Origin: Alitta virens
Lineage: Eukaryota > Annelida > Polychaeta > Phyllodocida > Nereididae
NCBI GenBank assembly: GCA_932294295.1
Contig: OW028584.1
Span: 35,969,969 to 36,033,968, forward strand
Reading direction: 5' to 3'
Length of the DNA stretch: 64,000 bases
Below are positions 3,501-64,000 of this stretch, in pieces. A program made the translations under genes and the position numbers. The notes under the pieces are model-generated. The model was not told the origin of the DNA and did not search any database. It was given only the letters and a program-made list of their open reading frames with translations. Positions within the stretch are counted from its first letter, which is position 1; the number at the start of each line of letters is the position of its first letter.

Positions 3501-4112
3501 GCATTTGAGAGCTCTTAGATGAAATTCACATGCTCCTAGACTTAGCATTTTCTGTAATGCATTTGAGAGCTCTTAGATGAAATTTACATGCTCCTAAACT
3601 TACCATTTTCTGTAATGCATTTGAGAGCTCTTAGATGAAATTCACACTCTCCTAAACTTAGCATTTTCTGTAATTCATTTGAGAGCTCTTAGATGAAATT
3701 TGCATGCTCCTAAACTAAGCATTTTCTGTAATGCATTTGAGAGCTCTTAGATGAAATTCACATGCTCTTGCAACTTACCATTTTCTGTAATGCATTTGAG
3801 AGCTCTTTGATGAAATTCACACTCTCCTAAACTTAGCATTTTCTGTAATGTATTTGAGAGCTAAATTCACATGTTCCTAAACTTAGCATTTTCTGTAATG
3901 CATTTGAGAGCTCTTAGATGAAATTCACATGCTCCTAAACTAAGCATTTTCTGTAATGCATTTGAGAGCTCTTAGATGAAATTCACATGCTCTTGCAACT
4001 TAGCATTTTCTGTAATGCATTTGAGAGCTTTTAGATGAAATTCATATGCTCCTAAACTTAGCATTTTCTGTAATGCACAGGAGAGCAGAGCTACCGTACT
4101 CCCCACCCCTCA
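541..4112. repeat. 58-bp satellite array with higher-order repeat structure
   Basis: About 60 tandem copies of a unit close to 58 bp, with a conserved core reading GCATTTTCTGTAATGCATTT followed by a GAGAGCTCTTAGATG block. Variant units differ in the part after the ATGAAATT block (for example CACATGCTC, TTACATGCTC, TTGCATGCTC, or shorter forms). Three special units contain GCACAGGAG and CCCCACCCCT at 1816, 2974 and 4075. They are 1158 and 1101 bp apart, so blocks of about 20 units have themselves been duplicated. Short open frames inside it on the minus strand are products of the repeat, not genes. Confidence 0.95.
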
Positions 4113-15900: not shown

Positions 15901-18900
15901 TTTGGAATCTTATTTTTGTTTATCTATTTTATAAGGAGGCATAATTTGGAATCCTACTATTGTTTATCTATTTCATAAGGGGGCATAATTTGGAATCTTA
16001 CTTTTGTTTATCTATTTTATAAGGAGGCATAATTTGGAATCCTACTATTGTTTATCTATTTTATAAGGGGGCATAATTTGGAATCTTACTTTTGTTTATC
16101 TATTTTATAAGGAGGCATAATTTGGAATCCTACTATTGTTTATCTATTTCATAAGGGGGCATAATTTGGAATCTTACTTTTGTTTATCTATTTTATAAGG
16201 AGGCATAATTTGGAATCCTACTATTGTTTATCTATTTTATAAGGGGGCATAATTTGGAATCTTATTTTTGTTTATCTATTTTATAAGGAGGCATAATTTG
16301 GAATCCTACTATTGTTTATCTATTTCATAAGGGGGCATAATTTGGAATCTTACTTTTGTTTATCTATTTTATAAGGAGGCATAATTTGGAATCCTACTAT
16401 TGTTTATCTATTTTATAAGGGGGCATAATTTGGAATCCTACTATTGTTTATCTATTTTATAAGGGGGCATAATTTGGAATCTTATTTTTGTTTATCTATT
16501 TTATAAGGAGGCATAATTTGGAATCCTACTATTGTTTATCTATTTCATAAGGGGGCATAATTTGGAATCTTACTTTTGTTTATCTATTTTATAAGGAGGC
16601 ATAATTTGGAATCCTACTATTGTTTATCTATTTTATAAGGGGGCATAATTTGGAATCTTACTTTTGTTTATCTATTTTATAAGGAGGCATAATTTGGAAT
16701 CCTACTATTGTTTATCTATTTCATAAGGGGGCATAATTTGGAATCTTACTATTGTTTATCTATTTTATAAGGAGGCATAATTTGGAATCCTACTATTGTT
16801 TATCTATTTTATAAGGGGGCATAATTTGGAATCCTACTATTGTTTATCTATTTTATAAGGGGGCATAATTTGGAATCTTACTTTTGTTTATCTATTTTAT
16901 AAGGAGGCATAATTTGGAATCCTACTATTGTTTATCTATTTCATAAGGGGGCATAATTTGGAATCTTACTTTTGTTTATCTATTTTATAAGGAGGCATAA
17001 TTTGGAATCCTACTATTGTTTATCTATTTTATAAGGGGGCATAATTTGGAATCTTACTTTTGTTTATCTATTTTATAAGGGGGCATAATTTGGTATCCTA
17101 CTATTGTTTATCTATTTTATAAGGAGGCATAATTTGGAATCCTACTATTGTTTATCTATTTCATAAGGGGGCATAATTTGGAATCTTACTTTTGTTTATC
17201 TATTTTATAAGGAGGCATAATTTGGAATCTTACTATTGTTTATCTATTTTATAAGGGGGCATAATTTGGAATCTTACTTTTGTTTATCTATTTTATAAGG
17301 AGGCATAATTTGGAATCCTACTATTGTTTATCTATTTTATAAGGGGGCATAATTTGGAATCTTACTTTTGTTTATCTATTTTATAAGGAGGCATAATTTG
17401 GAATCCTTCTATTGTTTATCTATTTCATAAGGGGGGCATAATTTGGTATCCTACTATTGTTTATCTATTTCATAAGGGGGCATAATTTGGTATCCTACTA
17501 TTGTTTATCTATTTTATAAGGGGGCATAATTTGGAATCCTACTATTGTTTATCTATTTTATAATGGGGCATAATTTGGAATCCTACTATTGTTTATCTAT
17601 TTCATAAGGGGGCATAATTTGGTATCCTACTATTGTTTATCTATTTCATAAGGGGCATAATTTGGTATCCTACTATTGTTTATCTATTTCATAAGGGGGG
17701 CATAATTTGGAATCCTACTATTGTTTATCTATTTCATAAGGGGGCATAATTTGGTATCCTACTATTGTTTATCTATTTTATAAGGGGGGCATAATTTGGA
17801 ATCTTACTTTTGTTTATCTATTTTATAAGGGGGCATAATTTGGGATCCTACTATTGTTTATCTATTTCATAAGGAGGCATAATTTGGAATCCTACTATTG
17901 TTTACCTATTTTATAAGGAGGCATAATTTGGAATCCTACTATTGTTTATCTATTTTATAAGGGGGCATAATTTGGAATCCTACTATTTTTTTATTCTTTT
18001 TTATAAGGGGGCATAATTTGGAATCCTACTATTGTTTATCTATTTTATAAGGAGGCATAATTTGGAATCCTACTATTGTTTATCTATTTTATAAGGAGGC
18101 ATAATTTGGAATCCTACTATTGTTTATCTATTTTATAAGGGGGCATAATTTGGAATCCTACTATTGTTTATCTTTTTTATAAGGGGGGCATAATTTGGAA
18201 TCCTACTATTGTTTATCTATTTTGTAAGGGGGGCATAATTTGGAATCCTACTATTGTTTATCTATTTTATAAGGGGGCATAATTTGGAATCCTACTATTG
18301 TTTATCTATTTTATAAGGGGGCATAATTTGGAATCCTACTATTTTTTATTCTTTTTTATAAGGGGGCATAATTTGGAATCCTACTATTGTTTATCTATTT
18401 TATAAGGGGGCATAATTTGGAATCCTACTATTGTTTATCTATTTTATAAGGGGGCATAATTTGGAATCCTACTATTGTTTATCTATTTTATAAGGAGGCA
18501 TAATTTGGAATCCTACTATTGTTTATCTATTTTATAAGGAGGCATAATTTGGAATCCTACTATTGTTTATCTATTTTATAAGGGGGCATAATTTGGAATC
18601 CTACTATTGTTTATCTATTTTATAAGGAGGCATAATTTGGAATCCTACTATTGTTTATCTATTTTATAAGGGGGGCATAATTTGGAATCTTACTTTTGTT
18701 TATCTATTTTATAAGGAGGCATAATTTGGAATCCTACTATTGTTTATCTATTTTATAAGGAGGCATAATTTGGAATCCTACTATTGTTTATCTATTTTAT
18801 AAGGGGGCATAATTTGGAATCCTACTATTGTTTATCTATTTTTTAAGGGGGCATCCCACACTATGTTACATTAGTGACTCCATGGTTACACTGAGTTACT

Positions 18901-45500: not shown

Positions 45501-47868
45501 TCTTTATATTCATGGCCAATGCATTTCATGCTCCCAGGTGGGAGTGTAGAAAATTGAGTGCTGTCATTGACCGCCAACGAATCGTTTAGGTAGAGTTTCA
45601 TAAGGTAGTTCTGTGGTGCTTGATCCACAGTCAGTGCATCTCCAATTCTTTGAAAGGGAACGTCTTCATCCCGGAAATCTGCATATTTGATCATGTCAGT
45701 TATCGATGCTGCTTCACCAAACAGCATCACAATTCCTTTTTCTAGGGGAATGACTCTGTTTAATTTGGTGAAAATTCCTCCTGCTTGTGGACTGGTTAGC
45801 AGTTTGCCTTCCTTCCATTCTCTTTCTTCTCTTGTGATATACACATTGAGATTTTCAGATTCCTTATCCACCAAAACAGGGCAGAAATAAATCAGTAAAT
45901 CCTTGGGATCAATATAAATAACATTGTCAGCTAGCACAGTGTTCTCCTTTCTGCTTGGGTCAGAATAGTTGTGATACACAATGCCTTGTGGACATTTCTC
46001 TTCATCCCATGCTGGGCAGGTGATGTTGAAGGGCAGATTTGGGTCCAGGGAGTGGTAGCACTTCTGAACATCTTCACATTCTTGACAAAGCCCCTGGTTG
46101 GTTTCAGTGTTGTTAACATTACAGTATCTTTCATCACATTCAATTTGATAAATCTGTTGGGAGCACCCTCTACCTGCACCGATGGTCAGGCACTTGTAGT
46201 AGAACCAATCATGACACTTTCCTAGATCTGGACCAATCCCCTCACCTGGCATGCACAGTTGAGATGAATCACACCAACCACATCCAGTCCTTTTGCTGCA
46301 CTGAAGACAACTGTCAAACCTTGAACAATAGCTCCTACTGCATGCCCTTCCCTGCCAGCCTGCTTTGCATCTGCACTGGTTAGGCCCAACACACTCTCCC
46401 CTACCAGAACACTCGTTCACATCTTTGCAATGAAACTCCGAACAATCTTCTCCACTCCAGCCCTTATTGCAGACACATGTCTTACCAGAACATAGGCCAT
46501 TCTGGAAGCAACTATTCTTGCAAAGTACAACTGAGAACTTCTCACAGATATACGGACGAAGCAGAGAACACTTGGAACCCATTGTTGTGCCATTTTGAGG
46601 CACATAGATGTGGCATTTATCAGGAACTGTTGTACTTATGACTTCATTGCCTTGAGAAGAAAGCTGAACCCAAATGTTGGCAAATTTATAACTTCCATCA
46701 ACATCTCTGTATTGTGTTGCCGAGGAAATGTATTTCTTATTTTTAACAAGTAGATCTGACAACAACAAGGTGGCCCCAATAGCTTCACACTCTTTGACGG
46801 CCTGGCCATACATGACTGCTCCTCCTCTGTACAACAGGCAGCGTGATCCCTGGCGACTCCATCCAACTGGACACGATGCTGCAACAATAAATATCACTGC
46901 AGTTATCTTCCTGATATTTCAAATGTACTTGATAAAAAGAAGGGTGTAATGAAATTTGAGTCACTATTAAACTCTCAAACTTAAGAATTGTGAGTCAAAT
47001 TCGCACATTAAGCACCCCAAATGAGATAATTTCTGCTAAAAATCATTCACACTACCTATAAATTGGATGGCACCACAATATCAACACTTGCAGACAGTTA
47101 CCAGTTTTGATTTTAATGACTACTTGGCGGTTAAAAAGTTTATATTCTCAACCTGCACTTGAAGGGGAGTTTGAAAAGTTTTGAGCCTAACACACTTCAG
47201 ATTTCTCCCAATGTCCCCTCTTGTCATTATCAAACTAAACATTTAAGTTCATTAAGATTACTTACAAGACAATCCAAATTCACTTGGAGGATACATCCAA
47301 AAAGGTTGGTAGTTGACAATGGGTAATCCCTGGGTGTTCTGTGAACTTCTGATCTTCAATCGCACTTGATCTGGTTGGCCTGACCCCCACCAGTTGTTGC
47401 TGCAGTCAATATCAGAAGGAGATGGGATCCCAGTTTGGGCAGAAAACTCAAAAGTATTGGCCGGATTATTCAGGAGATTTCGATTGAAGTTAACTGTTGA
47501 TGCATTTGCAAGAATTGTGTACTTTGCAGCTGCTTGTTGTGCGGCATTTAACCAGAATATATTATTAGTTATGTTCTGGTCCAGGAGATTGCCAAGACTT
47601 CGAGCAAAACTGCCCAATTGGAGAATGTATCTGCCTGTGTTGTTGTAGATGAGGTTGCCATCCATTACCAAACTTGCATTAATCACCCGTATGACATCAG
47701 TCTTATCCTGAGCTGTGTTCTGCTGGATGTCATTATTCACTAACCAGACCATTGCTTCTTTTATTCCTCTGTTCCATACCGAGATGACGCCATCTGTTCT
47801 GCTGCTTCTCATTGTGTTTTGGGTAAGCGTTACCTCAGCAACTCTGTTCTTCGTACTACTATGTGCTA
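32231..47868 (-). CDS. Giant type I membrane protein: beta-helix, C-type lectin, EGF, PSI, VWD, cadherin
   Basis: Nineteen exons, all with AG/GT borders and matching phases. From 5' to 3' (high to low): 47868-47266, 46878-44978, 44529-44332, 43806-43726, 43348-43250, 41931-41700, 41283-41101, 40912-40816, 40543-40399, 39865-39755, 39388-39007, 38613-38352, 38032-37893, 37474-37280, 36922-36758, 36334-36221, 35750-35054, 34114-33951 and 33582-32231. They give about 2,370 residues. Order: right-handed beta-helix-like region, C-type lectin domain, two EGFs, PSI-like module, long mixed region, CxC-rich region, VWD, about eight EGFs, two cadherin repeats, Ser/Thr stalk, transmembrane helix, short tail. 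It should act at the cell surface in adhesion or recognition (inference). The 5' end is not found: the first listed exon begins next to a minisatellite and lacks a signal peptide, so more exons lie upstream. It is close in style to VWD/EGF proteins, but I know no named orthologue with this order. Confidence 0.85.
33951..35750 (-). CDS. Two exons encoding the EGF array
   Basis: Exons 35750-35054 and 34114-33951. They encode about seven consecutive EGF-like units of the tenascin/teneurin style, each near 32 residues with six cysteines and a GW/GF-SGxxC ending (for example CQCAEGWSGKDC, CLCHDGFIGDDC, CKCYLGYAGPTC, CLCNPGWTGINC, CKCMSGFSGKDC). One further unit has CQCSKGYTGSDC. The units lack the DxDE calcium-binding signature. 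MITE family A copy 4 (34285-34672) sits in the intron between the two exons. Confidence 0.9.
34285..34672. mobile_element. MITE family A, copy 4
   Basis: A 388-bp element from CAGTTAGTTTCAC to GAAACTAACTG, flanked by TA on both sides, in the intron between the two EGF exons of the large gene. It is somewhat longer than copy 1 because of an extra internal segment. Confidence 0.85.
36221..38613 (-). CDS. Five exons encoding the VWD domain and its follow-on module
   Basis: Exons 38613-38352, 38032-37893, 37474-37280, 36922-36758 and 36334-36221. The VWD domain begins GDPHLDTVDGQDFDYFGIGQ and closes with GLCGFMDDDMSNDLMGPDG, which is the usual GLCGNxNGxxxDD region with altered glycine/asparagine positions. 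The next two exons encode about 90 residues with DQLDISYTDPNF and LLDGCIYDV. This resembles the short segment that follows VWD in VWD/EGF and mucin-4/SUSD2-type proteins. The placement before the EGF array matches that of known VWD-EGF receptors. Confidence 0.85.
39007..40543 (-). CDS. Three exons encoding a CxC-rich cysteine module
   Basis: Exons 40543-40399, 39865-39755 and 39388-39007, each starting and ending at phases that keep the frame. They are exceptionally rich in Cys-x-Cys and Cys-x-x-Cys steps (CCLCEDDDG, CPCFCDPP, CMCEECPDG, CPCTCPDEP, CPCECECKNC, CKCECPEKPC) interleaved with acidic and lysine-rich stretches. The part from about 39180 downward becomes EGF-like (CPNCQSCSGNGVC). 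I know no named domain with this spacing. It could be a compact disulfide-rich stalk or, less likely for a secreted region, a metal-binding segment. Confidence 0.8.
40816..44529 (-). CDS. Six small exons encoding a linker without a known domain
   Basis: Exons 44529-44332, 43806-43726, 43348-43250, 41931-41700, 41283-41101 and 40912-40816. The first three and the start of the fourth are in phase 0, so exons could be skipped without loss of frame. The residues are alternating polar/hydrophobic with features such as GWTLTGKISNTLELSAS and IRIQWPLWYG, suggesting beta-rich structure. I recognise no domain. The ~1-kb transposon at 42051-43031 lies in the intron between the exons at 43250 and 41931. 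Confidence 0.8.
42051..43031. mobile_element. Non-autonomous DNA transposon with GTGAATTCGGCGC subterminal repeats
   Basis: A 981-bp element starting TATTGGCCTAG and ending CTAGCCAATA, which are near-perfect inverted ends. Within about 140 bp of the left end, GTGAATTCGGCG-type motifs occur about five times, one of them inverted. Within about 100 bp of the right end the inverse GCGCCGAATTCAC occurs about three times. The interior is AT-rich and non-coding. Clustered short subterminal motifs in inverted orientation are how several DNA transposon superfamilies (for example hAT, P) bind transposase. The superfamily is not determined and a clear target duplication was not found. Confidence 0.75.
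44978..46878 (-). CDS. Large exon: C-type lectin domain, two EGFs, PSI-like module, long ectodomain
   Basis: One exon of 1901 bp, in phase with its neighbours. It opens with a C-type lectin fold start (CPVGWSRQGSRCLLY ... AVKECEAIGATLLLSDL) that lacks an obvious EPN/QPD sugar-binding triad. Two EGFs follow (CVCNKGWSGEDC, CRCKAGWQGRAC), then a PSI-like segment (CLQCSKRTGCGWCDSSQLC) as in MEGF8/attractin-type proteins. A second cysteine cluster (CDERYCNVNNTETNQGLCQEC) leads to about 380 residues without an assigned domain but with several N-glycosylation sites (NIT, NGT, NDS). It ends near a run of basic residues VRRRKRS, a possible furin-type cleavage site (inference). Confidence 0.85.
47266..47868 (-). 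CDS. Most upstream visible exon: right-handed beta-helix-like region
   Basis: About 200 residues with the short repeating hydrophobic/Asn pattern of parallel beta-helix (PbH1) proteins: NNDIQQNTAQ, LVMDGNLIYNN, QNITNNIFW, VNFNRNLLNN and a final NNWWGSG, a signature common at the end of such coils. The 3' border (GTAAGT at 47265) joins in phase to the lectin exon. The 5' border is uncertain: GCAG before 47868 is possible, but the upstream sequence is minisatellite and gives no pyrimidine tract. Confidence 0.75.
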
Positions 47869-47888
47869 CTGCATAGACCCCTTCTATT

Positions 47889-48315
47889 TGTGGCTCAGGC
47901 CACGCCCCCTTTTGGCTTAGGCCACGCCCCTTTTGCATACTAATGAGCTAGGCCACGCCCCTTTTGCATACTAATGAGGTAGACCGACCCCCCCCTATGA
48001 ATACTAATGAGCTAGGCCACGCCCCTTTTGCATACTAATGAGGTACGCCCACCCCCCTATGAATACTAATGAGGTACGCCCACCCCCCTATGAATACTAA
48101 TGAGGTACGCCCACCCCCCCTATGAATACTAATGAGACAGGCCCACCCCCCTCTATGCATACTAATGAGGCAGGCCCACCCCCCTCTATGCATACTAATG
48201 AGGCAGGCCCACCCCCCTCTATGCATACTAATGAGGCAGGCCCACCCCCCTCTATGCATACTAATGAGGTACGCCCACCCCCTCTATGCTCCTATGAATA
48301 CTAATGAGACAGGCC
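47889..48315. repeat. 33-bp minisatellite
   Basis: About 13 copies of a unit near 33 bp (GAGGCAGGCCCACCCCCC ... TATGCATACTAAT). Left copies have the variant GGCCACGCCCC TTTTGCATACTAATGAG. Because 33 is divisible by three, both strands show repeat-encoded open frames, which I do not regard as genes. It lies between the beta-helix exon and the Polinton. Confidence 0.9.
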
Positions 48316-48319
48316 TATC

Positions 48320-48580
48320 ACAAATTTAATCCAGTGTGTAAATAAACAAATTAATTCTTTAATCCAGTCTGTGTAAAATAAACAAATACAAATTAATTCT
48401 TTAATCAAGTCTGTGTAAAATAAACAAATACAAATTAATTCTTTAATCCAGTCTGTGTAAAATAAACAAATGCAAATTAATTCTTTAATCCAGGCTGTGT
48501 AAAATAAACAAATTAAGTTTTTAATCCGTTGTGTAAAAATTCCATTAATACTTTAATCCGCTGGGTAAAAATTCCATTAA
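48320..48580. repeat. 42-bp tandem repeat near the element's left end
   Basis: About five to six degenerate copies of TTAATTCTTTAATCCAGTCT followed by GTGTAAAATAAACAAAT. The repeat stops about 80 bp before the first Polinton promoter. It may be part of the element's terminal region, since Polinton ends often carry tandem repeats, or it may be host DNA. The other terminus would be needed to decide. Confidence 0.8.
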
Positions 48581-48629: not shown

Positions 48630-48698
48630 GACCAATCAAGGTAGTAAGAAAGCTGACCACCAGGTATATAACAGTCAGGTGAAAAGTAAGTCTAAAAA
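48630..48698 (+). promoter_or_regulatory. CCAAT and TATA promoter of the left RING-like gene
   Basis: A forward CCAATCA motif (about 48637) and, about 30 bp further, TATATAA (48665-48671). Transcription would start near 48695, almost on top of the ATG at 48698, which raises the chance that the second ATG at 48725 is used. Confidence 0.6.
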
Positions 48699-49183
48699 TG
48701 ATCAGTCTACTAGTTCTCATCAACATGGCCCTCAACCCAACATGTAAACTTTGTCATGCCTCTTCTCCAAAGTTTGCATACTCATGCTGCTACACAAAAA
48801 CATTCAAACTTACATGTTACGACTGTATCAAAACATGTATTACCAGGCAAATTACTCATGCAGTTTTTTTACAATATGAAAACGTAGAGGAGCAGGTACA
48901 TTGCATGTTCTGCAGGTCAACACAATTCGACATACTCAGAACAAAACGACGAATCAGAGTTGCTGTACACTGGGATAGGACCTTCAGATACAGACAGACT
49001 TTTAAAAAATATACACTTGCAAAGTTCGTAGATATCCCCCTGACCACAACAATTGCAAGAATTGCAAAGTTTGCACTGGATGAAGAAGTTCACAAGATAG
49101 AACAGGAGCACGATAGACAAAGACAATACCTTGTAAATAGTATTTTTAGGCCCTTGTTAACCATGTTTATGCAAGGAAAATGA
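48698..49183 (+). CDS. RING-like zinc protein, paralogue of the protein at 53239
   Basis: An intronless gene of 161 codons, or 152 if the ATG at 48725 is used (MALNPTCKLC), which lies nine codons later and fits the expected transcription start better. Cysteine pairs are spaced as in a treble-clef/RING-like fold: CKLC, then a CC pair, CYDC, and CMFC. The remainder is basic and helical (residues about 85-155), ending LVNSIFRPLLTMFMQG. The same cysteine order, and the tail pattern L-x-N-x(4)-P-x(3)-F, recur in the protein at 53239-53865, so the two are duplicates that have diverged. RING proteins usually act as ubiquitin ligases and some viral ones counter host defence, but here that is inference. 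AATAAA (49190-49195) follows the TGA by about seven bases. Confidence 0.8.
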   Translation: MISLLVLINMALNPTCKLCHASSPKFAYSCCYTKTFKLTCYDCIKTCITRQITHAVFLQYENVEEQVHCMFCRSTQFDILRTKRRIRVAVHWDRTFRYRQTFKKYTLAKFVDIPLTTTIARIAKFALDEEVHKIEQEHDRQRQYLVNSIFRPLLTMFMQGK

Positions 49184-49440: not shown

Positions 49441-49581
49441 AAAAAAAGCAAATATAAAAATTGGAGACAGTCCTCATCTGAAATAGAATAAATGTTTTTT
49501 ATATTAGTATATTGATAGATGTTGTTATTAACCTAGTAATACAAATCTTTACGATATAAATGATTAAAATACTAACCATTG

Positions 49582-51364
49582 TCAGTAATACTGTCTTATC
49601 TTCTCCCTAGCAACTTGGGCAGCTTTCCGTTGTGACCTACGTCTAGGTTCTGGAACAAAGAGAGGGGGGCCTAAAAATATATTTTGACAACTATTTTAAA
49701 AATAAATTAATTTAAGATATTTAACAAATACAAAGAAATGCAGGAAGGGTTATACGCACCATCACTGCTAGCGTGGCTACTCGCATCAGACAAGTCCTCA
49801 AAGCCCGCCACTGCATTGAACAGAACTGTAAAAATAAATATGACATTTTTCTGATATATACCATACTAGTTTATCTAAATTAACTATGTAGTAATGTACT
49901 TAACCCCTAAGAAGGTATATTTCTTTGACTAAAGATATCTCTTGATGTTTTTTTAGAGTTACATATTTAACACCAGGGGTTCACAAGGCGACTAAAGCGC
50001 CCCCTTGTGTAAATTTCTAGTATCACGGCTTTAATGCTATAGCGTATTGTATAGTTAAACCGTAGTTTGTCATACTGTGTAGATATTATATATGTTAATT
50101 ACAAACTCTCAATCAATCGTTACCTTCATCATCTGATTCATCCATGAGAGGTATGGCAGGCGCAGGTCGTCCTCCCAAGATGTCCATGTCATTAAGACGG
50201 AGGAATCTCTCATCATCATCAGCATCCTCCAGCATCTCAATATCAGCGAACGGCTCAGCAGCTCTCTGAACCAGTTCAGCCCTCCTCGCACGTCTCAAGA
50301 CAACTGAAATGAAAACAAAACTCGGCTAAAATTTTGTAATTTAACCTAAAAAATAGTAAATGGTATGCACATTATCTGGCGGTTTTGAAATTGTAGGCTT
50401 AATTTAAATACATTATCTTAAAGTTATGATTAGTCGTAAATATGTAAAAATTATTATGGCTCACCCTTTATACACAAGACAATCGCGACCATCATGACCA
50501 GTGTTGAACAAATCGTCAAAGGCATGACAATCTTCAAGAAACTTGAAGTTCTTCCCATCACCATGGTTGTTGTCCAGTCAGGGGTTAAAGTTGTCAGTTC
50601 AGGTCTCGTAGACACAAAGTCTGTATCAGCAGTTGTCATCCCGGATCCAAAAATGACTACCCTTCCAGACCTGAAGATAACCTTGACACTAGCATCACGG
50701 CCTTTCAACTGCTCCATGACCTCGTCTTCTGAGCGTGTATAGAACCTATGACCAAGAAGTATTTATTAAAAAAGAATTTTTTTTAAATTTTCCTTAATGT
50801 TATACTCATTGACACTCATAAGGAGCTATTTATGAATGAATCGCCTGATAACAAAGAACTGGCTAATTAATAATACTAAAGTGCGCACAATAGGTTAACT
50901 ACTATCTGATCATCTTGAAAAGTATATACATGTTCAACCAAATACTATTTTTAGAACAAATGTGTAGTACACATAATCCACGCCAGACGGCTGATAACCC
51001 CGCCGTCTAGTGTAAAATAGCGGTATCAATGTTTTAATTAAATTATATAAAACAATCAGAAAGCTCAATAAACTTATTCTAATAGCAGGTAACAAGCTAT
51101 CAACGAGTGACTTTTTTAGTACGAGTGTATATACATATATATATATATATATATTCAAAAGGTTGAAACAGCCAAAATAAAAGGTTTAATATATATAGGT
51201 ATTATGAATAACTTTACTCACCGGATTTCTTGAACATCATCCAGAGAGATGTATCTTAAATCTGCTACATCCGAATCATCACAGATCAAGACACCATTCT
51301 CCTCATTCTGACAACCAAGTACCACAGACAGTACAAACAATCTCATCAATGACGACATGGCCAT
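49582..51364 (-). CDS. Spliced type I membrane protein, five exons, Polinton accessory gene
   Basis: I assembled this from splice signals. The exons are 51364-51222, 50745-50465, 50303-50124, 49825-49760 and 49670-49582. Every intron is GT..AG (donors GTGAGT, GTGAGC, GTAACG, GTGCGT) and every phase matches, giving 252 codons plus TGA. Exon 1 starts with a signal peptide (MAMSSLMRLFVLSVVLG). Exon 2 holds most of a ~100-residue ectodomain and the membrane segment (LTICSTLVMMVAIVLCI). Exon 3 follows with VVLRRARR, a stop-transfer signal, and an acidic stretch (EDADDDE). Exons 4-5 finish a cytoplasmic tail of about 110 residues ending in a basic segment (PEPRRRSQRK). A TATA-like TATTTATA lies about 100 bp upstream of the ATG. 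The family is unknown. It could be an envelope or receptor-like accessory protein of the element, or a captured host gene. Confidence 0.8.
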
Positions 51365-53238: not shown

Positions 53239-53865
53239 ATGGCTGTTTGCATTATCTGCACAGAGAATGAGGCATCTTACCAACTTCAATGCTGCTACAC
53301 TACTACTGCTGAGATGAAGATATGCAAGAAATGTCTTCAGACACTTGCCATACAAACAGCCACAGTAGACTATCAGAAGGGTCCTGCTCATGATCTTGCA
53401 GAGAAAATTGATCCAGAATTAACATGTCCTTTCTGTAGAGGTCATTATGGGTCAGTCATTGATAGCAATCTTACACAGTTTGATATCAGAGACTTTGTTG
53501 ATACTTTTCAGCTGCTTAAAACATCAAGATTTTTGAGGTTTGCCTACGAAGAAAAAGCACAGTCATTGAACCGCACCATAAAAACTCAGGAATCAAAGAT
53601 ATCGTCTTACAAAAAGATGATTGACGAGCAGACAAGACTACTACTGAAAGTACGATCAGAACTCAAAAAGAGCCAACTGAGGGAAAAAGAAGACCGGCGA
53701 CGACTCATGAACCAGGTCCTAGTACCCTTTGCAGACTTCCTCAATATACCAATAGCCCAGGGGTCAAGAAATACGACCTCCATCGCCCCCCTTACACCCC
53801 CCTCAACAAGACCCCCAACACCCCTGCCAATGGTGGAAGCCTCTACCATTGATCTGACTGAGTAA
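53239..53865 (+). CDS. RING-like protein with coiled coil and C-terminal SUMO-interaction-like motif
   Basis: An intronless gene of 208 codons starting MAVCIICTEN. The zinc-binding part (residues about 4-70) has CIIC, a CC pair, CKKC and CPFC, a RING-like arrangement without an obvious histidine. Residues about 105-170 form a charged coiled coil (EEKAQSLNRTIKTQ ... KKSQLREKEDRRR). A proline/threonine-rich stretch follows, and the protein ends STIDLTE. An I-D-L-T core followed by an acidic residue is the hydrophobic type of SUMO-interaction motif found in SUMO-targeted ubiquitin ligases such as RNF4. Ligase and SUMO binding are inference from motifs. The stop overlaps a poly(A) signal (TAATAAA, 53863-53869). 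It is a paralogue of the gene at 48698. Confidence 0.85.
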   Translation: MAVCIICTENEASYQLQCCYTTTAEMKICKKCLQTLAIQTATVDYQKGPAHDLAEKIDPELTCPFCRGHYGSVIDSNLTQFDIRDFVDTFQLLKTSRFLRFAYEEKAQSLNRTIKTQESKISSYKKMIDEQTRLLLKVRSELKKSQLREKEDRRRLMNQVLVPFADFLNIPIAQGSRNTTSIAPLTPPSTRPPTPLPMVEASTIDLTE

Positions 53866-55128: not shown

Positions 55129-55638
55129 TTAATTGAAATATAGAGGGGCATACAAGTGCATAATATCAACCAGTTCAAAAAATTCAGCTTTGTTCAAAGG
55201 ACAACCTTTCTTTGTAGGGACAAAGTCTTGGTGAGGCGAAGGCTTCCAGAACAGTCTTATGTCTACAGTGTTGAATTTTGTAGTTTGTAGACGAATACTT
55301 TCTGTGATATTAAACATTCCCTCTTGGCGATTTGTAAGGGCATTGAGAACTTCTGGTATCAGGTACAGCAGAGTTTTACCCTCTTCTACAGACATGTGTA
55401 CTCCTTTTCTGGTTGGGCAATCATTTTCATCATACAAACGGAGGTGAAGAAGTTTTCTTCCTTGATACTGCTTAAGAGTCATTCTACGGCCCCTTTTACC
55501 TAGGATCTCTTCAAAAAATACTATGTCTTGGTTTGTGGTAGTCATGATGGGATCTTCAGAGGCTGGAGGGTGATTATGATTCTTGATCAGCAAGCCTCTG
55601 CTTTTATTGCCTGAGAGACTAGGCCGCTCGATTTTCAT
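55129..55638 (-). CDS. Protein with two PC4-like (transcription coactivator p15) domains
   Basis: 169 codons from ATG 55638. After a ~35-residue polar leader, residues about 38-100 match the PC4 pattern: FFEEILGKRGRRMTLKQYQG, then LRLYDE, RKGVHMSVEEG and a final helix. Residues about 105-167 repeat it in weaker form: MFNITESIRLQTTKF, VDIRLFWKP, TKKGCPLNKAEFFELVD. PC4 domains normally dimerise to bind single-stranded DNA through the beta-sheet. A tandem in one chain could form the dimer alone (inference). Such a protein could act in transcription or in protecting replication intermediates. It is the last gene of the minus cluster. CCAAT boxes precede it. Confidence 0.7.
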   Translation of the reverse strand: MKIERPSLSGNKSRGLLIKNHNHPPASEDPIMTTTNQDIVFFEEILGKRGRRMTLKQYQGRKLLHLRLYDENDCPTRKGVHMSVEEGKTLLYLIPEVLNALTNRQEGMFNITESIRLQTTKFNTVDIRLFWKPSPHQDFVPTKKGCPLNKAEFFELVDIMHLYAPLYFN

Positions 55639-56991: not shown

Positions 56992-57732
56992 CTACAGTGC
57001 TTTATAAACGGTAGTAGGACTTGTATCATCAGGAAATATATTAGATCTCAATCTAAGGTTATCGGCAGTATTATTATGTAGATCTATTATGAAATAAGTA
57101 TAAGGTACAGGAGTTGCTGCTAAGTAAGCATCAAGGAATCTCTTGTAGCCTAACTGTCTGCCTAGAGTTTGGATTTGCTGTTTATCACGATTGTTTGCCA
57201 TGACTACAAAAACTTGGGTATTTAAAGTTAAGGTTCGTGAATGTTTGGACTTTGGGAATAGGTTGTGTGTTAGGAGAATAACTGAGCAATTGTTGTGATG
57301 CATGCCGATAGTGAAAAGTTTCAAAATGTTGTCAGCGTTCATTGATTCATTCATTAAATCATCCAAAACAATAGTCTTGTGCTCTGTAGTGGATGCTTGG
57401 AATGTTTCAAGCTCTTCTTCATTTGGTAGTCCATAATGGAAGGATATGTTATCCATCTCAGTCTCCATTTTAGTGAACATTGACTGCCAGGTACTATTGT
57501 AACAGTAAAGTATCTTTTCAGGAGGTCTGTGAAACATGGCATGTTTAAATAATTGGTATACAAATGTAGATTTACCCCCCTGTGTTGGTGAGGCTATAAT
57601 CATGTTGCACGGAGAGGGTATCAGAACAAGAACCTTGTCTTCAGACATAGTCTTCCAACTCTCCGGTATGTCATCATTCTCGCGAGTATGAGATACATCT
57701 ATAATACTCGGTCTTTCCATTGTAAATGACAT
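56992..57732 (-). CDS. ATP: DNA-packaging ATPase (FtsK/A32 type)
   Basis: 246 codons from ATG 57732; a second ATG four codons later is possible. The P-loop reads SPTQGGKST (Walker A, about residues 50-58) in the context PCNMIIASPTQGGKSTF. Walker B is TIVLDDLMNE (about residue 120). A sensor-like VILLTHNLFP follows and the C-terminus has LGRQLGY. Length and order match the genome-packaging ATPases of Polintons, adintoviruses and other double-jelly-roll viruses, which drive DNA into preformed capsids. It lies 18 bp downstream of the major capsid gene, the standard morphogenesis pairing. Confidence 0.92.
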   Translation of the reverse strand: MSFTMERPSIIDVSHTRENDDIPESWKTMSEDKVLVLIPSPCNMIIASPTQGGKSTFVYQLFKHAMFHRPPEKILYCYNSTWQSMFTKMETEMDNISFHYGLPNEEELETFQASTTEHKTIVLDDLMNESMNADNILKLFTIGMHHNNCSVILLTHNLFPKSKHSRTLTLNTQVFVVMANNRDKQQIQTLGRQLGYKRFLDAYLAATPVPYTYFIIDLHNNTADNLRLRSNIFPDDTSPTTVYKAL

Positions 57733-57750: not shown

Positions 57751-59022
57751 CTATTTAAGAGTTACGTTCCGTGTCCCTGTAATCTCCATTAGACATGGTG
57801 TTTCGGCGTGGACTAATAAGCAAACGGCTTCTGTTAAAGGTTGTTTGAAATGGATAGACAGTCTGACATGACCGTGATCAGGCTCATAGGTACAGTCATA
57901 TGATGGTTTAATATTAAATGCATACATTGTACAACTGTGGACATAGTCGAAGAGTGTGATATCATTACCAAAATCATTCCCCAGCTCTCTGAAGGTCTCG
58001 TACAGACTAAGATAACAGGGGGCTACCCCCGTACCTTGTTTTGAATCAAAGGATGGTGTGTAAGATGCAATTGTGTTATTATTGACAGACAGACTGATTC
58101 GTGTAAGACCAAAATTAGTGAGGATGTACGGGTTTTTTTTCTTATGGCCGTTATAGTTTTCAGACGATACAAAGGTGATTAAAATTCTTGACGGGAGTTG
58201 ATTTGGGAAGATGTTATCAAATGTTCCTGATGTGAAGCCCATTGGTAAGTTATCTACCCTGATCTCCCTTCTTGTGTATGGAAAGAGTGCAGGCTTATTT
58301 TCCATTTTTTTAGCAATTGCATATTGGACAGGTGGATAAAGTTCAACCATTCTAGCCTTAAATATGACATCCTCTAGGTGTATTTTATAGGATCCAGTAG
58401 GTTCCAGGTTCAGTAAGAAAAATTCTTGTGAAGTTCTGTCTAATTTGATTGTGAGACGAAGGTTATTAGGTAAAAACCTTTTCTGCATGAATATATCCTC
58501 ATAAAGAGGACCTTGAAGTTCAACAGAGTTTGATTTTTCAAACATCTTTTGTCTTTTATTAGCTCCAACATTACCGGTAATTTGATCAGCATCATCAGAA
58601 TCATCCTTAAAGTATCCTTGTGCCTGTAGTTGTGACTCTTTTGCTCCTTTCTGGTATGCTAACAGTGTGCTAAACATAGCCTTGTAAGGATAGTCTTTGT
58701 TTGAAGTTGTAATCTCTTTACCTTCAATGTATACAGATATTTTTTCAAATAAACTGTGTAGGACATTGTTTACAGGTGCTACCTTCTTATCAGCCATAAT
58801 CGCCGTATTGTCCTTCTTTAAAATCTTCATTTTAACATAGAGTTGACTATTATAAAGGTCAAGAAAGTGCTTCTGTTCTGTAATATCAAAGATTATAGGG
58901 GCATCATCTGACAGCTGTGTAACGGGTCTATATTCCATAGTGTATTCTCTCTCAACCATCTTCTGTACTACTGGTGGTGAGAACAGGTCCAGTTGAGGGA
59001 GACTAGCGTTTCTTGCTTCCAT
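57751..59022 (-). CDS. MCP: Major capsid protein, double jelly roll
   Basis: 423 codons from ATG 59022. The N-terminal pattern is diagnostic of the Polinton/adintovirus capsid family: LDLFSPPVVQKMVEREYTMEY, then IIFDITEQKHFLDLYNSQLY, VAPVNNVLHSLFEKISVYI and YPYKAMFSTLLAYQKGAKES. The conserved FLPNNLRLTIKLDR and PYTRREIRV segments follow. These proteins trimerise into pseudo-hexameric capsomers. The frame is uninterrupted. The gene overlaps the stop of the upstream basic-protein gene by 20 bases. Confidence 0.93.
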   Translation of the reverse strand: MEARNASLPQLDLFSPPVVQKMVEREYTMEYRPVTQLSDDAPIIFDITEQKHFLDLYNSQLYVKMKILKKDNTAIMADKKVAPVNNVLHSLFEKISVYIEGKEITTSNKDYPYKAMFSTLLAYQKGAKESQLQAQGYFKDDSDDADQITGNVGANKRQKMFEKSNSVELQGPLYEDIFMQKRFLPNNLRLTIKLDRTSQEFFLLNLEPTGSYKIHLEDVIFKARMVELYPPVQYAIAKKMENKPALFPYTRREIRVDNLPMGFTSGTFDNIFPNQLPSRILITFVSSENYNGHKKKNPYILTNFGLTRISLSVNNNTIASYTPSFDSKQGTGVAPCYLSLYETFRELGNDFGNDITLFDYVHSCTMYAFNIKPSYDCTYEPDHGHVRLSIHFKQPLTEAVCLLVHAETPCLMEITGTRNVTLK

Positions 59023-59423: not shown

Positions 59424-59819
59424 CTATGGCTTATATAGGAAATGGAGGGTGACGTATGTAACCCCCCTTGTATTGAGTTGTAGACTTTCCTCAGTCTTAG
59501 CCGAAAGATGATAGATCTGAATACAGTCTATAAAGTTTTGAGATACCGGTATGTAATAGGGGTAAGGAATACTAACTTGATCTGAGGGTATAAGTCGTAA
59601 TATGCTATACTGCTTTTCTCCTACAATACTCGACATGCAGACATCGCTACAGACATAGACATCTTCCGAAATTGGTGATTTGTATTGGACAAGTGCAACT
59701 TTCCAGCCTTCCTTAAGTAAAAGAGGCCTGTTCAGCTTTACTTTAAAATTACTTGCAGTGTTATTTAAAAAATGAATCTTGCCGTGTTGGCTTTTGATGG
59801 TGATGTAGAAATCATTCAT
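59424..59819 (-). CDS. Penton-like minor capsid protein (single jelly roll)
   Basis: 131 codons from ATG 59819. The upstream integrase stop overlaps it (ATGAATGA, eight bases shared). The start MNDFYITIKSQHGK leads to NTASNFKVKLNRPLLLKEGWKVALVQYKSP. The pattern 'N...F.V.L..PL.L..GW.VAL..I..P' marks the N-terminal strands of Polinton minor capsid (penton) proteins. It is shorter than most pentons I know of, so it may be a reduced form or only the jelly-roll core. It would occupy the five-fold vertices. Confidence 0.75.
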   Translation of the reverse strand: MNDFYITIKSQHGKIHFLNNTASNFKVKLNRPLLLKEGWKVALVQYKSPISEDVYVCSDVCMSSIVGEKQYSILRLIPSDQVSIPYPYYIPVSQNFIDCIQIYHLSAKTEESLQLNTRGVTYVTLHFLYKP

Positions 59820-60906
59820 AGTTATGTATTTGATCAATGTCAACCCAAGAGTTAAACTTTGCTGGGTAACCGAGCCAGCTAACTAATCCCTGACGTTCCC
59901 CGTCTTTAATGCGGTGTCTCAAAATCTTCTCAACCTTATATACTTCATCATCATCAACATTGGCCTCTTGTAACTCCTGTTCATAGAAACTACCTCCTAT
60001 GGTATCAAGTTGTAAATCAACCAAGCGGTATCGAGGAGGGTGAGATGATATTCTCTTGTCTATGAGAAATATTTCCTCTGTCCATTTCTGATCAAACCCT
60101 CGCTGGAATGGTCTACGGCTGAAGGGGATTCTGACTTTATCCCCAATTTCATATCTAAATACGACTGTCGTCTGCTCTCTCTTTAATTCTACTGGTAGGT
60201 ATAATTTTTCGTAGAGTTCTTGTTGATTCTCAAGTGTTACTTGTGCAGGAGACATACCAATGCTGGAGTGACGAGTGTTATTGTAACCTCTTACAATATC
60301 CTGGAGATCATCTATATACCGATGAGATTGATGTTTTGTAAAAAACCTGTAGATCCTGCCTTTCAAAGTTCTAATGACTCTCTCAGCATAATTTGCATGA
60401 TAAACGTTGTATGTTATAATATGGTTAATATTCTTTGACTTAAAATACTCTTGTACTACTTTTGCCTTGTACTCAGAACCTTGGTCGGTTCTTATACTTC
60501 TTACTGATGGCTCTATGTCGTTAAATACTTTTTCCAAGACTTGTGCCATCTCTACCCCTTTTTTGGTCTTCATAGGTTGTACTCGTAAATATCTACTAAA
60601 TAGATCTATAAATATAGCTAAAAATCTAATACCGTTATTTTTCTTGCTAAATTTTTGCATATCCATTAAATCAGAATCAATTATTTCATTAATTTCTCCT
60701 ACTATGATTGGCTCTCTTTTAAATTTCTCAGTAGGATGCTTGTGTATAGAGTAGGTGTACTGTCTTGCAAGCCATTCCTTTATATCTTTGTACTTTAATT
60801 TGTGAGGGTTTCCATCTCCCTGTATGCTCTGCCAAAACTTTACTACTCCTGTGTAACTACCAGCTTTACTTGTGCTGTAATACATAGTCTTTAAATATTC
60901 ATCCAT
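59812..60906 (-). CDS. INT: Integrase: retroviral-type DDE core with C-terminal chromodomain
   Basis: 364 codons from ATG 60906, overlapping the upstream gene's stop (ATGGATGA). A short N-terminal helical part without a full HHCC finger precedes the core. First Asp in IIDSDLMDM, second in RTDQGSEYKAK, Glu in NYAERVIRTLKGR, with 33 residues between the last two, as in other Polintons. Then comes a GYNNTRHSSIGMSPAQV segment. The last ~45 residues form a chromodomain (VYKVEKILRHRIKDGE ... LVSWLGYPAKFNSWV), which can steer insertion towards marked chromatin. The enzyme inserts the element and makes the 6-bp target duplication. All catalytic residues are present. Confidence 0.93.
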   Translation of the reverse strand: MDEYLKTMYYSTSKAGSYTGVVKFWQSIQGDGNPHKLKYKDIKEWLARQYTYSIHKHPTEKFKREPIIVGEINEIIDSDLMDMQKFSKKNNGIRFLAIFIDLFSRYLRVQPMKTKKGVEMAQVLEKVFNDIEPSVRSIRTDQGSEYKAKVVQEYFKSKNINHIITYNVYHANYAERVIRTLKGRIYRFFTKHQSHRYIDDLQDIVRGYNNTRHSSIGMSPAQVTLENQQELYEKLYLPVELKREQTTVVFRYEIGDKVRIPFSRRPFQRGFDQKWTEEIFLIDKRISSHPPRYRLVDLQLDTIGGSFYEQELQEANVDDDEVYKVEKILRHRIKDGERQGLVSWLGYPAKFNSWVDIDQIHNYE

Positions 60907-61286: not shown

Positions 61287-64000
61287 TTAATAGCCGTAAG
61301 GCAAGGTATCATAAGTGTCCAGTAAAATTCTCTTAGTGTATACTAGGTTGACCGTTTTGTAAGTAGTTCTGTTGAAGACTTGACCATGAACTTTATCCCT
61401 GACAAACATGGTATATGGAGGGAGCCTAATGGATATGTCTTTCGTGACAACTTCTCGGATGTTGGCAAAAGTAACATACTTTTTATTGGTAGGCGTCATT
61501 ATGATGCCCTTAAATTTGATTTCTTCTTTCCCGTCATTCATCTGGTAGCTGTATGATTTTGGACCGGAAGAGATAAATTTAGTGATCCATCGCCCCGGGG
61601 GTAGCTCGTCAGTAAGTTGTCCTAGAAAGTCTCCTAGGAGGGGCATAGGTTGATTGGGTCTAGCCGTAAATATGACAGAGTCTGTATCCATGTACAATAC
61701 CCTCTCTCCCAGGAAATCGATGAGTTCATAAAGTTTTAGTCGTGCCCAGCAAGTAGTAAATGATGCAATGACATCATTTGTTTTGAGGTTGTCGGGTTCA
61801 AAGGTTGTTCTACTCTTTAGTTCAACCAATAAACAGTCTTCATTGATCATGTTGATCATCAGTATTTCAACAGTAGGATCATTTGCGAGTTGTTTGAACT
61901 TGACGGGGTCTGTAATGTACTGACTCTTTGTCTGATTTGGTTTCTCTCCAAATTTACCCCAAAAACTATTGAGAGCTAGCTTTGCAACAGTTCTGAGTCC
62001 TGGGTTATGTTTGATGTTGTCCTTTCTGAGGGTGATGCCTTCTGCTTCTTGGTATTGCTGTATGTACCTCTCTTGATCTGCAGCAGTTTGTATCCATGAG
62101 GGGTTACCTGATGCCTCTTGTTTGATTCGGAGGAATGTGTCAACATACTGTCTAAAAAGACTGTCAGAGGATTCTCTCCAATGGTAGACTTCGTATATTT
62201 TGAGGATGGTGTATCCTTTCTCCAAAGCTTTCAATATTTCAGGAGTGCAATATGTCCCTGTTATGGCTCTGTCTTCAGGACTGCATTGACATGGTACATT
62301 GCTTTCTTTTTCAGAACATGTACGACATAGTGGGAATTTTAGTCTTCCTCCTGATCTATGAGGGAGGACTGGATGATATAGACCTCTTGGAGGTAGAGTC
62401 TTTATTTTGACAATTCCAAAGTATGACTTCATGGTGTAGTCAAACTGGGTTGTAATGATCTCTGGATGCCCTACTGGTAATCGTTTGTACTTGTTGACAT
62501 AGGGATAGAGGCTTGTGTAGTCGTAATAATGTATCTTTTCATCCTCAACAGCCTCATAGTGAAGTTTCATGGCATTTACCCTTCCTCCAAAGAAAGAATC
62601 TCGAATTTGAAGACGTGTTGGTATATCCAGACTGGAAAGAAACTGTCTCATCTCAGGGTCTTGTTTAATTTGCTCGTCAAACTGGCATTCCCATATCGTT
62701 ATGACTTGATGTTTATTGCTTTTCAGGAATTCTTCTCTCTCTACGGTTCTTTTGTATAGATCGTCCATTGTGTGTTTATTGTGGTTGTCTCTAACTTGTC
62801 TGTCTGGATAACATTTGGGGCATCCGTGCCAGCGACATCCATAAAACTCATACAATACCCCATTGGTATCAGCCCCGTCTATCCTGTAGTTCCCCATTGA
62901 AAGTTCTCCTATGTTACGTGCATGTTGAATGAAGATCTTGTTGTAATGACTGAGGTATTCGAGCCATTGAATTGACTTGTAACTGTGATTGTCTCGTGCT
63001 GTATAGCCTTGTGGAGGTATGTGAGCAATATCTGACTTGAGAAAGGTTTTTTCCTGGATTTCTCCGGATGGTACTGGTTGGTTGTTACTATAAAACTGTC
63101 CTCCTGTTTTCTTCATAGGTGTAGCTATTTTGTCTTGTAGAATAGTCTGGTAGTATTCAGTGAGGAAGTTCTGCCTAAATATCTGCATGCAGGTGGAAGC
63201 AATGGTGACTTGGGAGAAAGCATCAACATCTTGAGTACCATCCTCAACCTCTATACTAGTAACTTCTTTGATCAGCTGGCGAAACTTCAGGCATGCATCT
63301 CTTAAAATCAGGACATCAGTTCTGCAGTACTCCTCCATATCTTTGTGCATGTCATAGGGACCTTGTCTACAGTTGTACCAATCTTGATCTATTTCCTTAC
63401 TGTAAAACTCAATTGGTGGAGGTCTGTCAAAATACTGTTGTTGAAAGTGTGCCCTTGTGTTGAAAAGATAGGGGAAGTCTCCTTTCTTCAGAGATGATGA
63501 CAATCCTAGCGTCTTGGGGAGTTTCTTCAGTGCCATGGGTAGGAAGTTGAAGGAGTCTATGAATTTCATGTTGAGCTGTTTGACATGCATGTACATAATC
63601 TTTGTTCCATTCTTGGTTAAAGCTGGCTGCATACTGTTTTCCAGTAGATATCCCAGGAGAAATATGTAATCATATCCTCTTCCATTGTGGGCTATACAGA
63701 TGGTCTCTTTGTGACCCTCATTGAATAGCCATTTACCAAACGTTTTGACAGTGTTATCCCCCTTGAAGATTACCTCTTTCTTGTAGCATTGTTGGCATGT
63801 CTGTGTCTTGTCATGAGATAGGCATTTGATACTGCATGATTTACAGTGTGTCATCTCTCTACTACAGTTGTTGCATATACTTTCTGCTACAACAAAGTTT
63901 GGTATGTGCTGCTGAAGACCGCAGTACCAGGTATTGCATTTCTGACATCTTCTGCAGGCTGAACAAGTGAACTCGTCGGTGCAGGTTTGACATCCTTCTT
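61287..64000 (-). CDS. PolB: Protein-primed family B DNA polymerase, 5' end cut by the window
   Basis: The frame is open from the stop at 61287 to the last base of the window, about 904 codons. The ATG at 63854 is internal, since the frame continues upstream. Exonuclease: AHNGRGYDYIFLL, then SFNFLPMALKKLP and the YCRTDV motif (about 63310-63330). The Polinton-specific YGCRWHGCPKCY lies near 62815-62850. Polymerase motif A is DYTSLYPYV (about 62500-62525), motif B KLALNSFWGKFGE (about 61950-61985), motif C YMDTDSV (about 61678-61695). All catalytic carboxylates are present. The segment at about 63770-63995 is unusually cysteine-rich (CQTC, CSAC, CQKC, CNNC, CKSC, CQQC), probably several zinc sites ahead of the exonuclease. 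Confidence 0.95.
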   Translation of the reverse strand, partial: EGCQTCTDEFTCSACRRCQKCNTWYCGLQQHIPNFVVAESICNNCSREMTHCKSCSIKCLSHDKTQTCQQCYKKEVIFKGDNTVKTFGKWLFNEGHKETICIAHNGRGYDYIFLLGYLLENSMQPALTKNGTKIMYMHVKQLNMKFIDSFNFLPMALKKLPKTLGLSSSLKKGDFPYLFNTRAHFQQQYFDRPPPIEFYSKEIDQDWYNCRQGPYDMHKDMEEYCRTDVLILRDACLKFRQLIKEVTSIEVEDGTQDVDAFSQVTIASTCMQIFRQNFLTEYYQTILQDKIATPMKKTGGQFYSNNQPVPSGEIQEKTFLKSDIAHIPPQGYTARDNHSYKSIQWLEYLSHYNKIFIQHARNIGELSMGNYRIDGADTNGVLYEFYGCRWHGCPKCYPDRQVRDNHNKHTMDDLYKRTVEREEFLKSNKHQVITIWECQFDEQIKQDPEMRQFLSSLDIPTRLQIRDSFFGGRVNAMKLHYEAVEDEKIHYYDYTSLYPYVNKYKRLPVGHPEIITTQFDYTMKSYFGIVKIKTLPPRGLYHPVLPHRSGGRLKFPLCRTCSEKESNVPCQCSPEDRAITGTYCTPEILKALEKGYTILKIYEVYHWRESSDSLFRQYVDTFLRIKQEASGNPSWIQTAADQERYIQQYQEAEGITLRKDNIKHNPGLRTVAKLALNSFWGKFGEKPNQTKSQYITDPVKFKQLANDPTVEILMINMINEDCLLVELKSRTTFEPDNLKTNDVIASFTTCWARLKLYELIDFLGERVLYMDTDSVIFTARPNQPMPLLGDFLGQLTDELPPGRWITKFISSGPKSYSYQMNDGKEEIKFKGIIMTPTNKKYVTFANIREVVTKDISIRLPPYTMFVRDKVHGQVFNRTTYKTVNLVYTKRILLDTYDTLPYGY

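What the first reader, a model, noticed from the sequence alone, without database searches (positions are those of the whole stretch)
49582..51364. Hidden five-exon membrane-protein gene inside the Polinton
Four consensus introns with matching phases turn short fragments into one 252-residue frame with signal peptide, ectodomain, transmembrane helix, RRARR stop-transfer and a ~110-residue tail. Polinton genes are mostly intronless, so a gene with four host-type introns in the accessory arm is unusual. It suggests either capture of a host gene or an accessory surface/envelope protein expressed by nuclear splicing. Single-frame gene calling would miss it.
Basis: partly seen in the sequence, partly recalled or inferred. 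Interest (0 to 1): 0.9.

Follow-up and report, generated by a model that had tools for sequence, protein, structure and literature searches.

The report
Conserved spliced membrane gene in Polintons
A virus-like jumping element in a ragworm genome carries a five-exon gene for a small membrane protein, and the same gene with the same introns recurs in many other copies of the element, although such elements are usually described as having no introns.

Summary
The four introns are GT-AG at the stated bases, phases 2,1,1,1, giving a 252-residue frame. The gene lies inside an 18.8-kb Polinton with inverted repeats and a 6-bp duplication in the king ragworm Alitta virens. It is not a one-off. Exon 1 recurs at 136 places; 111 of 131 listed polB genes have it 9.4-19.0 kb downstream on the same strand, none on the other. 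Of 22 fetched copies, 17 show all five exons and 12 are open throughout with all eight splice dinucleotides in place. None of 102 exon 1/exon 2 pairs is contiguous. Between groups dN/dS is 0.07-0.27 where computable. The product looks like a type I membrane protein: signal peptide, small two-cysteine ectodomain, variable mucin-like stalk, one TM helix, charged tail. No credible Pfam, PDB or named-protein relative was found. RNA was not seen. Most likely it is an accessory infected-cell membrane protein working like adenovirus E3 glycoproteins; a virion attachment or envelope role is the main rival. Two surveys describe such elements as intronless.

The parts
51222..51364 (-). Exon 1: ATG, signal-peptide-like hydrophobic start, first part of the ectodomain with two invariant cysteines; donor GTGAGT, phase 2
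   Evidence: aligned in 9 copies; 136 genome places
50465..50745 (-). Exon 2: rest of the small ectodomain, S/T/P-rich stalk, TM helix; donor GTGAGC, phase 1
50124..50303 (-). Exon 3: basic juxtamembrane stretch and charged cytosolic region ending in an acidic motif; phase 1
49760..49825 (-). Exon 4: short Ser/Asp-rich tail segment; phase 1
49582..49670 (-). Exon 5: basic C-terminus and stop TGA
49478..49576 (-). Candidate 3'-UTR intron just after the stop, followed by an AATAAA at about 49409
   Evidence: consensus sites only; a GT lies directly after the stop in 14 of 15 copies and 5 nt further on in the window
53239..53865 (+). RING-like 8-cysteine gene, divergent neighbour at the 5' side
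   Evidence: found around the gene in 17 of the 20 loci L009-L028 and in L029; alignment; best fold match a RING domain at E 0.077 only
48698..49183 (+). Second RING-like gene, convergent neighbour at the 3' side, paralogue of the first
47855..48513 (.). Left terminal inverted repeat of the Polinton (88% to the right end over 659 columns); element ends at C12:36036581 (= window 66613); CTTCGT repeated on both sides
61287..63998 (-). polB, cut by the window end (PF03175; open frame of 1549 aa in the genome)
59812..60906 (-). Integrase, rve plus chromodomain
57751..59022 (-). Double-jelly-roll major capsid protein
   Evidence: model pLDDT 89; PDB matches PBCV-1, iridovirus, Sputnik, mavirus capsids
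56992..57732 (-). ATPase-like protein (Pox_A32 and Adeno_IVa2, both below Pfam's cut-off)

Best explanation
It is a standing accessory gene of a group of Polintons in Alitta virens. Shown: five coding exons in the accessory arm between two RING-like genes, exon structure and phases kept across diverged groups, purifying selection on the frame, and the sequence features of a type I membrane protein. Inferred: the element is transcribed in the nucleus and the host spliceosome joins the exons; the protein enters the secretory pathway, exposes a small cysteine-bearing domain on an O-glycosylated stalk, and its charged cytosolic tail binds or sorts inside the cell. The likeliest role is an infected-cell membrane protein that modulates host surface or sorting pathways, working like, but not shown to be related to, adenovirus E3 membrane glycoproteins. 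Probability that the gene is real and spliced: about 0.95; that the role is of this E3-like kind: about 0.45.
For: Splice sites and phases conserved in 12 of 22 fetched copies; codon-position-3 bias and no exon indels in 9 near-identical copies; dN/dS 0.07-0.27 in 29 between-group pairs; same place and strand relative to polB for 111 of 131; flanking RING-like genes in 17 of 20 loci; hydropathy and stalk composition; a capsid protein of the double-jelly-roll kind, which as far as I recall does not require an envelope.
Against: No RNA evidence. Ectodomain, stalk and tail have no relative of known function, so the role rests on topology and position. The extracellular part of exon 1 is well conserved, unlike many immune modulators. 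No N-glycosylation sequon was found in any exon-1 piece, and only 3 of 14 exon-2 pieces have one.
Confidence: 0.5

Rival explanations
1. It is a virion protein: an attachment glycoprotein or small envelope protein of the Polinton whose tail contacts the capsid.
For: Signal peptide, stalk, TM helix and a conserved basic tail; nematode Mavericks are reported to encode a putative fusogen (meeting report PMC10680173, passage).
Against: Too small for a known fusogen type (recalled); no similarity to any PDB sequence; the capsid protein is intact and of a non-enveloped-compatible kind.
Confidence: 0.3
2. It is a host gene captured with its introns, perhaps an adhesion or mucin-like surface protein, and kept for the element's own use.
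For: Host-type GT-AG introns, mucin-like stalk; nematode Mavericks carry host-derived cargo (PMC10680173, passage).
Against: No named cellular relative in the protein database, with queries long enough to admit full-length relatives; in-genome exon-1 matches sit mostly beside polB (111 of 131 polB). Not excluded: an old capture, or one from another species.
Confidence: 0.15
3. It is a chance chain of open fragments with consensus splice sites, not a gene.
For: No RNA evidence; each exon alone is short.
Against: Same phases and splice sites across groups with synonymous sites diverged to saturation, dN/dS well under 1 between groups, no exon indels.
Confidence: 0.02

Closest known systems
Vertebrate Mavericks/Polintons (PMC8097293)
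   Same: polB, integrase, capsid and ATPase genes, terminal inverted repeats, 6-bp target duplication, accessory regions at the ends
   Different: Intact vertebrate elements were reported to have no introns in their genes (passage); here an accessory gene has four coding introns
Adenovirus E3 membrane glycoproteins (recalled)
   Same: Small type I membrane proteins from an accessory region of a nuclear DNA virus, made from spliced RNA
   Different: No sequence relationship found; four introns lie inside the reading frame
Putative fusogen of nematode Mavericks (PMC10680173, passage)
   Same: A membrane protein gene added to a Polinton
   Different: Described as structurally similar to viral fusogens; the present ectodomain is small and has no known relative. 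The two were not compared directly

Membership tests
Polinton/Maverick element (the carrier) | polB and retrovirus-type integrase | tested here: met
   PF03175 E 5.6e-54; rve E 1.7e-10 and Chromo E 1.1e-7
Polinton/Maverick element (the carrier) | Double-jelly-roll capsid protein | tested here: met
   Model pLDDT 89, PDB matches to PBCV-1, iridovirus, Sputnik and mavirus capsids
[quoted passage not shown]
Polinton/Maverick element (the carrier) | Packaging ATPase | tested here: inconclusive
   Pox_A32 E 0.0013 and Adeno_IVa2 E 0.0018, below Pfam cut-offs
Polinton/Maverick element (the carrier) | Protease and minor capsid protein | not tested
   No Pfam match named them among the ten proteins; not pursued
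Adenovirus E3 glycoproteins | Sequence relationship to E3 families | tested here: not met
   Eight exon pieces, no E3 family in Pfam at E 1
Adenovirus E3 glycoproteins | Type I membrane topology | tested here: inconclusive
   Hydropathy only; no topology experiment
Adenovirus E3 glycoproteins | Expressed from spliced RNA | not testable with these tools
   Conserved splice sites only
Nematode Maverick fusogen | Fusogen ectodomain fold | not tested

The most novel reading that the evidence does not exclude
Annelid Polintons own a long-standing surface glycoprotein that can be made only after nuclear splicing of four introns and is used on the particle or the infected cell for spread between cells. 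Its introns would tie expression to the nuclear stage, and comparable spliced genes would be invisible in surveys of Polintons and endogenous viruses that use intron-free gene callers.
Probability: 0.25. Interest if true: 0.85.

Novelty: new variant of a known kind. Interest (0 to 1): 0.62.

Why it matters
Surveys of endogenous viruses and Polintons assume intronless genes: one used an intron-free caller for that stated reason (PMC10120064, passage), and another reported no introns in intact vertebrate elements (PMC8097293, passage). A conserved five-exon gene breaks that assumption and suggests an overlooked class of spliced accessory genes. The elements are numerous and some copies nearly identical, and a poly(A) RNA-seq run for the same worm exists, so the claim can be tested at once.

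Tried and rejected
Chance exon chain: rejected by conservation. Recent one-off capture: rejected as framed, since the gene is widespread among these elements. Other-species relatives: viral contigs scanned with exon-2 profile A1, the capsid protein and part of polB, no confirmed relative. Protein database with A1 and with A4, whose first row is long enough to admit full-length spliced relatives: only the window itself and unnamed ENA fragments that look like the same species by identity (P0001 99% to L018; P0006 reads like the L017 exon). PDB by sequence with A1 and A2: two matches at E 0.26 and 0.46, and none. A C-terminal dilysine retrieval signal (motif recalled) was considered; KKCY ends 6 of the 15 copies whose exon 5 is shown, and the window's copy lacks it, so it is not general. 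Results that do not help: within-group dN/dS of 0.55, 0.73 and 5.37 for L013/L014/L019, on few changes; the substitution contrast of exon against intron in the near-identical copies is not significant (p 0.06); introns of close pairs change less than third codon positions. A first version of the near-identical comparison used only 6 of 9 copies because of rigid anchors and was replaced. One search's script misplaced some exon-4 donors and the L016 exon 3 and failed on L020 and L026; supersede it. L031, near a polB without an exon-1 match, held no trace of the gene. L030, beside a more distant polB, has a weak possible relative on the other strand (exon 1 E 1.8e-4; exon 2 E 3.7e-7, helped by stalk composition; exons 3 and 4 not found).

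Full report
The structure is there. On the - strand five exons (51364-51222, 50745-50465, 50303-50124, 49825-49760, 49670-49582) are separated by four GT-AG introns in phases 2, 1, 1, 1, and each exon is open in the frame its neighbours require. The lengths sum to 759 nt: 252 residues plus TGA.

The gene lies inside a Polinton. An inverted repeat begins at window 47855 (ACTACT) and ends at C12:36036581 (AGTAGT; window 66613), 88% alike over 659 columns, with CTTCGT on both sides; the element is thus 18,759 bases, partly beyond the window. Its core genes are polB (PF03175), an integrase with chromodomain and an ATPase-like protein with sub-threshold matches. The 423-residue protein at 57751-59022 folds as a double-jelly-roll capsid protein (pLDDT 89; best PDB matches are PBCV-1, iridovirus and virophage capsids). 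These read as single frames; I did not look for extra exons in them. Contig lengths agree to about 0.01 Mb with the chromosomes of Alitta virens wpAliVire1.1 (PMC10352625, passages), so the host is taken to be the king ragworm.

The gene is general in this group of elements. The window's exon 2 matches 30 full-length rows in the genome at 95% or more (the window included) and many weaker ones (120 rows; 150 of 237 candidates scored). Exon 1 of another copy (L018) matches 136 places, all 136 candidates scored; 133 have no stop inside. Of 131 listed polB genes (131 of 1330 candidates scored), 111 have an exon-1 match 9,382-19,015 bases downstream (start to start) on the same strand, 20 have none, and none lies on the opposite strand within 20 kb; 25 of the 136 exon-1 places have no listed polB. 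With exon 2 of the window instead, 88 of 104 places (120 rows less 16 second pieces of a copy) have a listed polB upstream, and 43 of 131 polB have no exon-2 place. I fetched regions beside three of those 43: L029 carries all five exons, L030 only a weak possible relative on the other strand, L031 nothing. Of the 136 exon-1 places, 102 have an exon-2 match downstream at 360-1704 nt and 34 have none at that threshold; none of the 102 is contiguous, so no intronless copy was seen.

The introns are conserved in place. Of 22 fetched copies (L009-L030), 17 show all five exons. Twelve (L012, L013, L014, L015, L018, L019, L022, L024, L025, L027, L028, L029) are open throughout with all eight splice dinucleotides at the expected base. 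Five (L010, L011, L016, L020, L026) have a stop, frame break or shifted site in the pieces as matched, and L009, L017, L021, L023 and L030 lack one or more exons. Five of the twelve were themselves queries, and copies of one group are not independent; but exon-1 identity to L018 falls to 43% for the window, and synonymous sites between the window and eight of the nine others compared are saturated.

The frame is under selection. With codon counts summed over separately aligned exons, 45 pairs of ten copies were compared. In 11, synonymous change is saturated. The 29 remaining between-group pairs give dN/dS 0.07-0.27. Two close pairs give 0.20 and 0.21. Three pairs within one group give 0.55, 0.73 and 5.37 on few changes. 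In nine near-identical copies 15 of 18 exon variants fall at codon position 3, and no exon column is gapped against 35 intron columns (p 5e-9); the substitution contrast alone is not significant (p 0.06). Introns of two close pairs (L015/L027, L018/L024) change less than third codon positions, so introns may not be free of constraint.

The protein, read exon by exon, has a hydrophobic N-terminus, a small conserved domain with two invariant cysteines in exon 1 (nine copies), an S/T/P-rich stalk of 32-95 residues (38-65% S+T+P in 14 copies) and one TM helix (peak hydropathy 2.4-2.75). A charged tail follows, with [DE]ESD near the end of exon 3 in the nine aligned copies (L029 reads DEDDEE), a Ser/Asp-rich exon 4 and a basic exon 5. 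Pfam gives nothing above a curated cut-off (eight exon pieces). PDB sequences and named proteins give no credible relative. The gene is flanked by two paralogous 8-cysteine RING-like genes, present on both sides in 17 of the 20 loci L009-L028 and in L029. Their RING identity is suggestive only (weak Pfam matches; a RING domain is the best fold match but at E 0.077).

How it most likely works. Topology, accessory position and dependence on splicing resemble adenovirus E3 membrane glycoproteins (recalled), and the capsid is of a kind that need not be enveloped. I favour an infected-cell membrane protein acting on host surface or sorting pathways; a virion attachment or envelope role is the main rival, host capture a third. 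Shown are the exons, their conservation and the selection; splicing, localisation and role are inferred.

Against what is known. Intact vertebrate Mavericks were reported without introns, said there to agree with Kapitonov and Jurka 2006 (passages of PMC8097293; the 2006 paper itself is not held). A survey of unicellular genomes states that endogenous viruses do not contain introns (PMC10120064, passage). A search of PMC11071308 found no mention of introns or splicing, and the one intron passage in PMC11071296 concerns group II intron-like reverse transcriptases. Searches of the held library (listings and starts of abstracts only) showed no title on a spliced Polinton gene of this kind. Most subscription papers are not held, so I do not claim that it is unpublished.

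Noticed in passing
L030:5089-5367 (-): A CARD-only reading frame (PF00619, E 2.3e-11) with 150 scored matches in the genome (of 231 candidates). Five of the six listed polB genes of the roughly 65%-identity group have a close copy 12.9-13.8 kb away on the opposite strand (27 of the 150 rows compared), so it is probably an accessory gene of another Polinton group; viral CARD proteins that block apoptosis are known from iridoviruses (PMC4457926, start of abstract).
   Followed up: partly
window 53239-53865 (+) and 48698-49183 (+): Two paralogous RING-like genes with eight conserved cysteines flank the membrane gene in nearly every group looked at; they may form a module with it.
   Followed up: partly
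L013, L014, L019, intron 2: Intron 2 is 87 nt, in frame and free of stops in these three of the 12 copies tested, so a retained-intron form would stay open there.
   Followed up: no
G000:C4:15757103, 15784998, 15812893; G000:C5:9534451, 9562343: Exon-2 copies, and their polB genes, recur at a spacing of about 27.9 kb (27,895 twice on C4; 27,892 on C5), as if elements had been duplicated in tandem.
   Followed up: no
window 55129-55638 (-): The Polinton carries a PC4/p15-type transcriptional coactivator domain protein (PF02229, E 9.4e-12).
   Followed up: no
L017: A diverged copy with an intron 1 of about 1.7 kb; exons 3-5 and the RING-like neighbours were not found. Either a remnant or another group.
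   Followed up: partly
window 548-4077 and 15543-18854: Two long tandem arrays outside the element: a 58-bp unit in about 61 copies and a 44-bp unit in about 75 copies.
   Followed up: no
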